A DNA stretch of 7,617 bases from Nitrososphaerota archaeon (GTDB taxonomy: Archaea; Thermoproteota; Nitrososphaeria_A; Caldarchaeales; Wolframiiraptoraceae), in NCBI GenBank assembly GCA_021157985.1, contig JAGGVM010000068.1, positions 1-7,617 on the forward strand, in the 5' to 3' direction. The notes beneath the pieces were generated by a model that worked only from the letters and a program-made list of their open reading frames with translations, ran no database searches and was not told the origin of the DNA. Every line of letters starts with the position of its first letter. Positions within the stretch are counted from its first letter, which is position 1. Below, piece by piece: positions 3,738 through 7,037 of the stretch. A program made the position numbers and the translations under genes.

Positions 3738-3820
3738 TCCCCCTTCTGCGGCAACATTCTCCAAATCTCCGTTATATCGATTACTGCGAGGGTCATACTC
3801 GAGCACTGTGGCTAATCCTG

Positions 3821-3830
3821 CTTAAATACT
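3821..3830. promoter_or_regulatory. TATA-like element between the phosphatase and CBS-HPF genes
   Basis: CTTAAATACT reads AGTATTTAAG on the other strand, so it resembles a TATA box in both directions. On the minus strand it predicts initiation near 3799; on the plus strand near 3851. It is the best AT-rich element in this short gap, so the two genes may share it. AAAATA at 3840-3845 is a weaker plus-strand alternative. Confidence 0.35.
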
Positions 3831-3864: not shown

Positions 3865-5007
3865 TTGGAAAGGTTCCTTTCTCAAAGAATTTCTCAGTTC
3901 ATGAGGTCTCCGCTGTTTTTTCCGTCAAGCGCCACGGCATCGGCCGCGATCGGGAGGCTTCGGAGATCCAACGGCTTCGAAGCTGTGGTGAAAACGAGGT
4001 CTAAGGAAAAAGTTGTAACGCTTTTAGATTTCCTCAAGGTAGTTGATCCGAGTCGGACCTCTCTCGAAAGCATCGCGACGTCGGCGATACCGATTTCCCC
4101 CGATGCCAGCTTGTTAGAAGCAATAGATCTAGTCCTCATGAGTCAGGCTTGGAGCTTAATCGTCAAACAATCTGAAAAGGTCTTGGGAGTCGTATCCCAG
4201 CTAGATATGCTCAAAGTCGTCTCAAGCGCTCCCTATCTTCGGGATATTCCATGCGGCGAGGTGGTGGACGTTGACGCGCCGCGGGTGAACACGGACGACA
4301 GGCTTTCAACGGCTCGAACATCGATGAGGAAATATGGGATCACTTATCTTCCCGTTGTCGAGGGCGAGAACCTCGTAGGCGCGATCTCGATCAGAGACTT
4401 GGTCTTCAATTTGCTGCAGCCTAAGAAGAGCGCGACGTGGGGGAGTCGAGGTGGAGAATCCGCCGGGCCTTGGAGGATGCCTGTTAAAAGCATGATGGAC
4501 CGCTCCCCGTTCACCGCCGAGCGAACTACTCCTCTTTCAAAGGTTTTGGAGACTCTGGGAAACGGCGTGAAGGATGGATGCGTGGTCGTGGAAGGATCTA
4601 AGGTTTTAGGGGTAATAGGCCCGAGGGAAGCTCTCTCGGTTCTTCTCAGGTTCATGCCGAAAGAGGAGCCGCGGATCTACATAATCGGTCTACCCGAATT
4701 CGGGGATTTCGCGACCCTGAAGACCGCTAAGGACAAGCTGGCGAGAACCGTGAGCAGGATATTCGATCTCCGGCAAACCGTGGTGGAGGTCATGATCGAC
4801 GTCGAGCAGAAAAAGAGGCAGGGTAAGAGAACGCTCTACGAGGTACGCGCTAGAGTATATTCGCCTAGTAGGTTGATCAACGTATCAGCTCAAGGCTGGT
4901 ACCTATCAAAAGCCATCGACGACATCTGCAAAAGGCTTGACAGAAGGCGTTCAAGGGTCAAGAGGCGCCCGGATCGGGAGCCGAGACTATATATGAAGGG
5001 CTCCTAA
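3865..5007 (+). CDS. Four-CBS-domain protein with C-terminal HPF/RaiA-like domain
   Basis: 380 residues. Four CBS units can be marked: about 7-60, 68-121 (SLLEAIDLVL to LGVVSQLDMLK), 127-186 (TDDRLSTARTSMRKYGITYLPVV to LVGAISIRDLV) and 205-264 (TPLSKVLETL to VLGVIGPREAL). A linker of about 18 residues (187-204) separates the two CBS pairs. Residues 269-368 look like the hibernation-promoting factor/RaiA fold: a strand with VVEVMIDVEQKK, then EVRARVYSPSRLINVSAQG, then YLSKAIDDICKRLDRRRSRV with a basic tail. The last part lines up by eye with E. coli HPF, where a strand and an AEG motif lead into the AIDGLIDKLARQL helix. CBS pairs commonly bind adenine nucleotides, so this may be an energy-sensing ribosome-hibernation factor; that is inference. 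The TTG at 3865 is the first start after an in-frame TAG, with GGAGAG (3850-3855) nine bases upstream. uS10 follows directly downstream. Confidence 0.85.
   Translation: MERFLSQRISQFMRSPLFFPSSATASAAIGRLRRSNGFEAVVKTRSKEKVVTLLDFLKVVDPSRTSLESIATSAIPISPDASLLEAIDLVLMSQAWSLIVKQSEKVLGVVSQLDMLKVVSSAPYLRDIPCGEVVDVDAPRVNTDDRLSTARTSMRKYGITYLPVVEGENLVGAISIRDLVFNLLQPKKSATWGSRGGESAGPWRMPVKSMMDRSPFTAERTTPLSKVLETLGNGVKDGCVVVEGSKVLGVIGPREALSVLLRFMPKEEPRIYIIGLPEFGDFATLKTAKDKLARTVSRIFDLRQTVVEVMIDVEQKKRQGKRTLYEVRARVYSPSRLINVSAQGWYLSKAIDDICKRLDRRRSRVKRRPDREPRLYMKGS
4987..4995 (+). promoter_or_regulatory. TATA-like box inside the end of the CBS-HPF gene, possibly for uS10
   Basis: CTATATATG lies in the last codons of the CBS-HPF gene and predicts a start near 5017, giving uS10 a leader of about 75-80 bases. 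CTTTTA at 5026-5031 is a weaker alternative. uS10 may also be read through from the upstream gene. Confidence 0.3.
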
Positions 5008-5094: not shown

Positions 5095-5406
5095 ATGCCT
5101 ACGAACGTGCGGATCAAGCTGACTAGCACCGATCTGGAGAAGATCGAGCGAGTATGCTCCGAGATAAGGGACATAGCCCTGAAGACGGGGACCAAGATCA
5201 GGGGGCCGATACCGCTTCCCAGGAGGAGGCTCGTGCTCCCGGTGCGGAAGTCTCCATGCGGGGAGGGAACCGAGACCTGGAGAAAATATGAGCTCAGGAT
5301 TCATAGGAGGCTCATAGACCTCTTCATAACGGATCAGCGGGTGATGAGGCAGATAATGAGAATCCAGATCCCCGAAGACGTCTCCGTCGAGATGACCGTG
5401 CACTAA
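5095..5406 (+). CDS. rpsJ: Small ribosomal subunit protein uS10
   Basis: 103 residues, the normal size for archaeal uS10, a component of the 30S head. Conserved segments are plain: VRIKLTSTDLEKI (5-17), KIRGPIPLPRRRLVLPVRKSP (34-54), CGEGTETWRKYELRIHRRLID (55-75) and MRQIMRIQIPEDVSVEM (84-100). The ATG at 5095 places the N-terminus exactly where archaeal homologues begin (PTNVRIKLTS). An open frame extends upstream to a GTG at 5032, but the extra 21 residues are not like uS10. A GGGGG run seven bases before the ATG may act as a Shine-Dalgarno. In many archaea this gene follows the EF-1-alpha gene; here it follows the CBS-HPF gene instead. Its stop overlaps the convergent membrane-protein stop. 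Confidence 0.97.
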   Translation: MPTNVRIKLTSTDLEKIERVCSEIRDIALKTGTKIRGPIPLPRRRLVLPVRKSPCGEGTETWRKYELRIHRRLIDLFITDQRVMRQIMRIQIPEDVSVEMTVH

Positions 5407-6344
5407 GCTATAACCCCGACCGTTAGAAGCTGGTATATCGTGTGGGAGACGAAGAACACCACTAGGGTAACTAAGGCCGCTGTCGCGCCGTTTAATCTCC
5501 TGCCGTAAGCGGTTAAGGCCGTTAGGAAGGGGAGGGTCGCGACTTGGGCTATTATGAGGTATACGTCTCTGATCTGGTAGTAGAGCGGGGTGCGCTCTGG
5601 AGGTATAAGCCCCAATCCGAGAAGCCTGTTGAGCGATAGGATGGCCGGGAAGATCATGAGCGGGAGGCATGCGACGATAAGCGATGAGAAAAACTTGACC
5701 TCGTCGAGAAGCGAGGCGCCGGCCACTTTCCTAACCCTGTCTAAAACGGATTCGCCCTTAGATCCCTTGAAGAGGACTCCGGAGAAAAGGATCGCGACCA
5801 CGGTGATGAGCCCGTAGAGCGCTAAGGTGTTGAGGAGATATGAGCCCGCGGTCAAGAAGACGTTAGGCCTAACCGGATAGAAATGCATCAGGATCGAGAT
5901 CTGCCTACTATAGATCAGGAGGACGGTTGAGAGAACGAATCCAAGAGCGGGAACTATGAAGGTGACGACTTTCTGCTCATAGAGCGGCGTATAAAGCCAG
6001 ACCGGGAAGAAGAGGTTCGTCAGGATCCTGGCCATTCTTCCCCCGCTTTCGGGCTCGGCGAGGTCGGCGGCTGAAACCGTTCCCTTCTCCTTGAGGGCTT
6101 TGTAGACGCGTTTTCCCTCCTCGGTGAGGACGTAGTTCCGGTCCTTGTCCTGGGTTACGAACCCGCGGAGCTGTCTGAGGTTGTAGTAGAGCGATCCCGT
6201 GCTTATCTTCAAGCTATCCCGGAGGGCCGTCGCGCTGATCTTCCCAGCGTCCCCGATGGCCAAAAGGATCCTCCGCCTCGTCCTATACCTCAGGAGCCAG
6301 AGGAGCTCGTCCTCGGTCCGCTCCCTTATCGCCGTGATCAACAT
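5403..6344 (-). CDS. Membrane protein with N-terminal winged-helix DNA-binding domain
   Basis: 313 residues. Residues about 12-88 form an ArsR/MarR-like winged helix: LLRYRTRRRILLAIGDAG, then ISATALRDSLKISTGSLYYNLRQL as the helix-turn-helix with recognition helix, then a wing ending NYVLTEEGKRVYKAL. A short linker leads to about five hydrophobic helices (roughly 124-143, 165-190, 222-243, 260-278, 287-310), reminiscent of Yip1-type bundles, though I cannot confirm that family. The architecture predicts a membrane-bound regulator that holds its DNA-binding domain at the inner membrane face. No ligand or target can be read. The start is ATG 6344 with GAGG four bases upstream and a TATA-like box at 6374-6380. 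It is divergent from the AbrB gene, which is therefore a natural candidate target. The stop codon overlaps that of uS10 by four bases. Confidence 0.82.
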   Translation of the reverse strand: MLITAIRERTEDELLWLLRYRTRRRILLAIGDAGKISATALRDSLKISTGSLYYNLRQLRGFVTQDKDRNYVLTEEGKRVYKALKEKGTVSAADLAEPESGGRMARILTNLFFPVWLYTPLYEQKVVTFIVPALGFVLSTVLLIYSRQISILMHFYPVRPNVFLTAGSYLLNTLALYGLITVVAILFSGVLFKGSKGESVLDRVRKVAGASLLDEVKFFSSLIVACLPLMIFPAILSLNRLLGLGLIPPERTPLYYQIRDVYLIIAQVATLPFLTALTAYGRRLNGATAALVTLVVFFVSHTIYQLLTVGVIA

Positions 6345-6461: not shown

Positions 6462-7037
6462 ATGAGCTGGAGCGAGGACTCCGTGAGCTTTAGGGCGGCG
6501 ATCAGGCGGAGCGGGAACAGCCTCGTGATAACGATTCCAGCGGAGCTCAGCCAGCGATTCCTCCTCAGGGAAGGCCAGGAGCTCCTGATCTACGGCTTAT
6601 CGAGGAAGGTTCCGGAGTTCGAGGGAGCGCTTCAGATCTATCTCGGATACTTCGTCGTCCAGGAGAAGGCTCCGACCGCGGTCTTCAAGGTCGAGGTGGG
6701 GGAAGAGAAGATCCCCTTGCTTCAGGAAGTGGTTAAGGAGATCGAGGAAAAGTATCTTCCTTCCAGGGTTGATTTAATGAAGCTCGGGGACTCGGAGGTC
6801 GAGGTGGACTTCGTCTTCGGCGCGATAACCCCTACGACCATAAGGAGGGTTAGGGAGAGGAAGGAGGTCGAGGCAGCTGCATCGGAGATAGAGTTCAAGC
6901 TTTCATCAGCAGGCTTCAAGATCTCGGAGAAAAAGATCGAGGACAAGATAATCGAGTGGAGGAACATCGACCCAGCGAAGCTCTCAAAAGCGCCCTACAA
7001 GGTCTCGGAAGTAGTCAGATGGCGATGGGAGATCTAA
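6462..7037 (+). CDS. AbrB/SpoVT-type DNA-binding protein with unrecognised C-terminal region
   Basis: 191 residues. Residues 8-48 are a swapped-hairpin AbrB domain of the MazE/SpoVT type: FRAAIRRSGNSLVITIPAEL, then FLLREGQELLIYGL. Such domains dimerise and bind promoter DNA. The remaining 140 or so residues are unlike the short antitoxin or plain AbrB proteins. They hold alternating strands and amphipathic helices (LLQEVVKEIEEKYL, EVDFVFGAITPTTIRRVRERKEVEAAASEI, FKISEKKIEDKIIEW), and I do not recognise them. No toxin gene is adjacent, so antitoxin function is unlikely. The ATG at 6462 follows GGAGAGG. The next gene, endonuclease Q-like, begins 19 bases after the stop, so the two are very probably one operon. 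The protein could be an autoregulator of that operon; this is inference. Confidence 0.85.
   Translation: MSWSEDSVSFRAAIRRSGNSLVITIPAELSQRFLLREGQELLIYGLSRKVPEFEGALQIYLGYFVVQEKAPTAVFKVEVGEEKIPLLQEVVKEIEEKYLPSRVDLMKLGDSEVEVDFVFGAITPTTIRRVRERKEVEAAASEIEFKLSSAGFKISEKKIEDKIIEWRNIDPAKLSKAPYKVSEVVRWRWEI

What the first reader, a model, noticed from the sequence alone, without database searches (positions are those of the whole stretch)
3865..5007. CBS-domain array fused to an HPF/RaiA-like domain: candidate nucleotide-sensing ribosome-hibernation factor
The four CBS units are clear. The C-terminal 100 residues align by eye with bacterial HPF: a strand, a serine/alanine-rich turn ending SAQG where HPF has SAEG, a YLSKAIDDICKRL helix where HPF has MYAAIDGLIDKL, and a basic tail. 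CBS pairs often bind AMP, ADP, ATP or SAM, so one polypeptide could couple energy state to silencing of the 30S subunit. The uS10 gene directly downstream and the MCT-1-like gene nearby fit a translation setting. How widely this fusion is already described in archaea I cannot tell from here.
Basis: partly seen in the sequence, partly recalled or inferred. Interest (0 to 1): 0.72.

Follow-up and report, generated by a model that had tools for sequence, protein, structure and literature searches.

The report
Divergent archaeal ribosome-hibernation factor (HibA branch)
This archaeal gene encodes four CBS domains joined to a domain predicted to fold like bacterial ribosome-hibernation factors; it belongs to a divergent branch of the recently published HibA family, so it likely plugs and protects idle ribosomes, and its nucleotide-binding site is predicted to lie in a different CBS domain from that of the studied relative.

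Summary
Confirmed: the TTG-started 380-residue protein at 3865-5007 carries four CBS domains and a C-terminal domain predicted to have the HPF/RaiA fold. Modelled without an alignment, that domain has βαβββα order, and its 38 best PDB matches are HPF/RaiA/pY-family chains. The fusion is not new: it is HibA, published in April 2026 (PMC13324472), and P. abyssi HibA is the best solved relative (E 1.4e-35). The window protein lies on a separate branch: in a 72-row tree, canonical HibA (28 rows), the window clade (17) and a sister clade (25) each form one group. At the ribose-contacting position, canonical rows have Asp in 0 of 28 for CBS1 and 28 of 28 for CBS4; the window clade has Asp in 17 of 17 for CBS1 and Glu in 17 of 17 for CBS4. 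The ligand site has probably moved (inference). Neighbouring uS10 is no support: four genomes of the genus keep the surrounding genes without this one. Nucleotide control is unproven; AMP and ATP had no clear effect on ribosome binding of P. abyssi HibA.

The parts
3865..5007 (+). HibA-type gene (type-2 branch), 380 aa, TTG start, TAA stop
3820..3829 (+). TATA-box-like stretch gcttaaatac upstream of the gene (read by eye, not tested)
   Evidence: sequence; inference
3883..4044 (+). CBS1 (about residues 7-60); not found by Pfam, aligned to CBS1 of HibA; signature VVTLLD with Asp55 at 4027-4029
4063..4224 (+). CBS2 (about residues 67-120); signature GVVSQLD
4249..4419 (+). CBS3 (about residues 129-185); signature GAISIRD
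4414..4482 (+). Long loop (residues 184-206) at the place of the P. abyssi HibA PTC loop; residues 188-199 have pLDDT under 50; 23 residues here and in P. abyssi HibA
   Evidence: PMC13324472
4483..4656 (+). CBS4 (about residues 207-264); signature changed (GVIGPRE): Thr/Ser position is Gly252, Asp position is Glu255 at 4627-4629
4660..4968 (+). [quoted passage not shown]
4969..5004 (+). Basic C-terminal tail (residues 369-380), low confidence in the model

Best explanation
The gene encodes a member of a distinct branch of the archaeal HibA family (four CBS domains followed by a domain predicted to have the HPF/RaiA fold) that likely silences and protects idle ribosomes by seating its C-terminal domain in the 30S mRNA/tRNA channel and its CBS module in tRNA sites of the 50S, with an adenine-nucleotide site predicted to use CBS1 and to have lost CBS4. 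Shown here: the domain order, the predicted HPF fold, homology to P. abyssi HibA along nearly the whole length, the separate branch, and the switch of signature residues. Inferred: ribosome binding, the seating sites (transferred from the cryo-EM of P. abyssi HibA), silencing, and the moved ligand site. Untested: what ligand binds and whether it changes ribosome binding.
For: Profile of nine clade members against PDB sequences: best hit 9sr9_H (P. abyssi HibA; 9SR9 is HibA-ATP in PMC13324472), E 1.4e-35, positions 8-368. Single protein against the same chain: E 2.7e-22, residues 60-363. C-terminal domain folded without an alignment: the top 38 Foldseek rows are the HPF family, 22 by title and 16 by recall. 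Solved relatives of the CBS part include ribosome-bound CBS modules (SriA-D of Methanosarcina, Dri of Pyrobaculum) and MJ1225/AMPK gamma. The loop at the PTC-loop position has the same length. The three groups each lie on one side of a supported branch. Signature position, CBS1 Asp: canonical 0 of 28, window clade 17 of 17, sister 16 of 25 (plus 6 Glu). CBS4 Asp: 28 of 28, 0 of 17 (all Glu), 25 of 25. CBS3 Asp: 28 of 28, 12 of 17, 1 of 25. The position contacts ribose (motif G-h-h-T/S-X-X-D/N, PMC6429129 passages), and AMPK gamma CBS2, whose Asp is Arg, does not bind (PMC5535039 and PMC2080653 passages).
Against: No experiment on any type-2 protein was seen. The HPF domain shares only 15% identity with that of P. 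abyssi HibA, and the conserved motifs of the two branches in that domain differ widely, so individual ribosome contacts may differ. The Pfam and NCBIfam matches are below the curated cut-offs. In the full-length model the HPF part has lower confidence than the CBS part (ten-residue blocks from 60 to 88). CBS3 keeps its signature in the window protein, so binding at the CBS3-CBS4 interface is not excluded. Glu at CBS4 may still accept a ribose. The signature split follows the clades, so it may be one or two events rather than many.
Confidence: 0.8

Rival explanations
1. Nucleotide-gated hibernation switch: AMP (or ATP) binding to the CBS module directly turns ribosome binding on or off.
For: CBS modules commonly bind adenylates; P. 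abyssi HibA binds AMP with Kd 12 uM (PMC13324472); CBS1, CBS2 and CBS3 signatures are intact in the window protein.
Against: In the relative tested, AMP and ATP left the set of ribosome-bound states largely unchanged, with one extra weakly populated state in ATP; its authors leave open an effect on release or on a sequestering partner.
Confidence: 0.2
2. The protein kept the HibA architecture but left the ribosome: the type-2 HPF domain binds another RNA or a replication/repair partner.
For: HPF-domain motifs conserved in the canonical rows of the order (FKEHKEKHG...LIHCRA) are not seen in type 2; the HibA paper cites pull-downs of HibA with DNA recombination/replication proteins; one assembly holds both types.
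Against: The HPF family is the clear fold match. S30AE is detected in 10 of 35 members of A3 (best E 3.5e-7); of the 11 canonical rows in A3, 10 were scanned on their own and 3 reach it, at E 0.02-0.027, so the better scores lie outside the canonical rows tested. The PTC loop length is kept.
Confidence: 0.12
3. The coexistence of both HibA types in this genome is a binning artefact; the window contig comes from a close relative.
For: Of 398 genomes of the phylum, 49 have a canonical match and 58 a type-2 match at the thresholds used, and only this one has both; it is a 76%-complete, 158-contig assembly.
Against: Tetranucleotide profiles of the two contigs correlate at 0.927, higher than either with stretches of four relatives (0.665-0.828); other contigs of the assembly were not compared. 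The window's gene block is that of the genus; uS10 was found once in the assembly.
Confidence: 0.25

Closest known systems
HibA (P. abyssi Q9UYR4; PDB 9SR9-9SRF, 9T7H; PMC13324472)
   Same: Four CBS domains, long loop of equal length at the PTC-loop position, C-terminal HPF/RaiA-type domain, homology along nearly the whole length.
   Different: 25% identity in the CBS part and 15% in the HPF part; separate branch; Asp in the CBS1 signature, Glu instead of Asp in CBS4; different conserved motifs in the HPF domain.
Bacterial HPF/RaiA/pY (PF02482)
   Same: Predicted fold of the C-terminal domain; weak profile match.
   Different: Here fused to a CBS module; profile scores below the curated cut-offs.
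Dri (Pyrobaculum) and SriA-D (Methanosarcina) ribosome-bound CBS proteins
   Different: Matches cover the CBS part only; Dri has two CBS modules (PMC13324472).
MJ1225 / AMPK gamma
   Different: Match covers the CBS part only; not known to me as ribosome-bound (recall).

Membership tests
HibA (family, as described in PMC13324472) | N-terminal module of four CBS domains | tested here: met
   Three by Pfam, fourth by alignment and model
[quoted passage not shown]
   In predicted models:
HibA (family, as described in PMC13324472) | Homology to P. abyssi HibA along the whole protein | tested here: met
   E 2.7e-22, residues 60-363, single protein; E 1.4e-35, positions 8-368, profile
HibA (family, as described in PMC13324472) | Long loop at the PTC-loop position | tested here: met
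   23 residues in all 20 canonical and all 14 window-clade rows compared; low pLDDT
HibA (family, as described in PMC13324472) | Two archaeal insertions in the HPF domain | tested here: inconclusive
   Stretches of 8 and 12 residues against 10 and 13 in P. abyssi; no bacterial row was in that alignment
HibA (family, as described in PMC13324472) | Binds the ribosome and inhibits translation | not testable with these tools
Canonical (P. abyssi-like) HibA branch | Groups with P. abyssi HibA; Asp in CBS3 and CBS4 signatures, none in CBS1 | tested here: not met
Bacterial HPF/RaiA, PF02482 / TIGR00741 | Score above the curated cut-off | tested here: not met
   17.1 and 20.4 bits against 23.7; 18.9 and 22.4 against 40.9; whole protein and C-terminal piece
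Dri | Two fused CBS modules | tested here: not met
   One four-CBS module plus HPF-type domain

The most novel reading that the evidence does not exclude
Archaea have two anciently separated HibA switches with different metabolic inputs: canonical HibA reads adenylates through CBS3-CBS4, while type 2 reads a ligand through CBS1. The window's organism would be the rare case that carries both and so sends ribosomes into hibernation on two separate signals.
Probability: 0.25. Interest if true: 0.65.

Novelty: new variant of a known kind. Interest (0 to 1): 0.4.

Why it matters
The HibA paper could not say what nucleotide binding does for HibA. A sister branch in which the ribose-contacting residue has moved from one CBS to another is a natural comparison: if type 2 still binds ribosomes but binds a different ligand or at a different place, the role of the CBS ligand becomes directly testable. 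It also marks clade members that carried no name in the protein search (P0002-P0005, P0007-P0009) as likely hibernation factors.

Tried and rejected
A conserved translation neighbourhood was rejected. Flanks of five other clade members (L063-L067; ORFs of 90 aa or more, read by eye; only 384 bases upstream in L065) show different neighbours, including an eS1-like and a TGS-GTPase-like gene (names recalled) near L063 and a tyrosyl-tRNA-synthetase-like gene (recalled) beside L064 and L067. Four genomes of the genus have the window's block with no such gene between the HAD gene and uS10 (in G001 the HAD match is two short pieces only).

The first genome-contig scan with the single protein found nothing; the profile scan found 13 loci. 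Full-length fold searches were filled by CBS proteins, so the C-terminal domain was folded and searched alone. P. abyssi HibA structures do not appear among the rows shown of that fold library, whose entries end on 8 April 2026; they were compared by sequence only.

Strict mutual exclusion of the two types was considered: 1 genome of 398 has both where about 7 would be expected (Fisher p 0.004). The genomes are related, at most four candidates per genome were scored, the thresholds (1e-60 for canonical, 1e-35 for type 2) can miss distant copies, and many type-2 calls rest on the profile alone, so I do not claim exclusion.

Rows dropped: L072 and P0006 (long branches) are in the tree but outside the three group counts; loci whose ORF was under 330 aa, or identical to a row already in, were left out of the 72-row set. 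Some rows are near copies; with a 90% identity filter the counts are 26 canonical, 14 window-clade and 23 sister rows, with the same pattern.

Full report
What is there. The window (G000:C88:1-7617 of an 810,631-base, 158-contig assembly) carries a 380-residue ORF at 3865-5007 with a TTG start. The genome is listed as the same genus as G006, whose HibA-type gene has the coordinates and protein of the one on contig QMUP01000019.1, 'Candidatus Wolframiiraptor sp.'; so the host is, by inference, a Wolframiiraptor-like member of Caldarchaeales (order name from the search listing of PMC9246946; paper not read).

The known family. Madru et al. 2026 (PMC13324472; I read the abstract, parts 1-5 of 12, section 28 and further passages) describe HibA: a four-CBS module plus an HPF/RaiA domain, in 47% of archaeal genomes, seen on P. 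abyssi ribosomes with the C-terminal domain in the 30S mRNA:tRNA channel and the CBS module in three positions on the 50S. HibA inhibits translation in vitro, and its deletion in T. barophilus delays regrowth. The window protein matches its chain 9sr9_H at E 2.7e-22 over residues 60-363, and its clade profile at E 1.4e-35 over positions 8-368. Among the rows listed by the paper searches I saw no other description of the CBS-HPF fusion; one search listed 15 of 57, most subscription papers are not in that library, and it says that it holds no bioRxiv preprints.

A separate branch. The same assembly holds a second, canonical HibA on contig C89 (403 aa; E 3.5e-56 to 9sr9_H). A tree of 72 proteins puts canonical HibA (28 rows, with P. 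abyssi), the window clade (17) and a sister clade (25, with Bathyarchaeota and Nitrososphaerota among the named rows) each on one side of a supported branch (100/99, 99/98, 100/100). I call the last two type 2; the name is mine. I did not find a subdivision of HibA in the parts of the paper read; whether its HibA set includes type 2 I cannot tell, as the supplements could not be read here.

Ligand-site signature. At the Asp of the motif G-h-h-T/S-X-X-D/N, which contacts ribose, canonical rows have 0 of 28 Asp in CBS1, 28 of 28 in CBS3 and 28 of 28 in CBS4. The window clade has 17 of 17 in CBS1, 12 of 17 in CBS3 and 0 of 17 in CBS4 (all Glu). The sister clade has 16 of 25 Asp plus 6 Glu in CBS1, 1 of 25 in CBS3 and 25 of 25 in CBS4. 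CBS2 is mixed in all three: 19 of 28, 10 of 17 and 3 of 25. The window protein also lacks the Thr/Ser of CBS4 (Gly252). P. abyssi HibA binds one nucleotide, at the CBS3-CBS4 interface. By the precedent of AMPK gamma, where the CBS without its Asp stays empty, the conserved site of the window clade is predicted to be that of CBS1. This is inference from sequence.

Distribution. In 398 genomes drawn from the phylum, 49 have a canonical match (E 1e-60 or better) and 73 a match to the type-2 profile (E 1e-35 or better), of which 15 genomes show only the canonical protein at the same place; of the 58 left, only the window's genome also has a canonical match. In the order's 44 genomes the window clade occurs in four (G000, G006, G010, G013). 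Seven genomes show two or three canonical matches (G107, G119, G150, G244, G254, G272, G327), so extra copies as such are not unusual.

Setting. CarS, a zinc-ribbon-like ORF, MFS, PUA, HAD and uS10 keep their order in G001, G002 and G003, and MFS to PHP in G006, with no tblastn match to the window protein in these stretches (the HAD match in G001 is two short pieces). The gene was therefore probably gained at this place in the window's lineage (loss in the others is possible), and adjacency to uS10 is incidental.

Verdict.

Noticed in passing
L002:1384-2595 (-), G000:C89: Second, canonical HibA in the same assembly, beside a beta-CASP-type hydrolase gene and a methyltransferase-like gene (both names recalled).
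   Followed up: yes
G002:C5:70691-71873 and G005:C18:5499-6656: Canonical HibA copies in two genomes of the genus appear in pieces with frame changes or stops, either decay or assembly error.
   Followed up: no
sister-clade rows (L008, L021, L027, L068-L071, L073, L075 and 16 rows among L104-L122): The sister type-2 clade keeps Asp in CBS4 (25 of 25) but has His or Gln in place of Asp in CBS3 in 22 of 25 rows, a third signature pattern.
   Followed up: partly
window 6462-7034 (+): AbrB/MazE-like N-terminal domain (Pfam just below cut-off) with a long unassigned C-terminal part, followed by a PHP-type gene (recalled name); the pair is conserved in G006.
   Followed up: no
window 5403-6344 (-): Winged-helix domain fused to what looks like a multi-pass membrane part, conserved next to uS10 in G006 (70% identity).
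   Followed up: no
PDB 9l96_a (406 aa): A CBS-domain chain that matches the canonical HibA of this genome at E 2.3e-42; I did not learn what complex it comes from.
   Followed up: no
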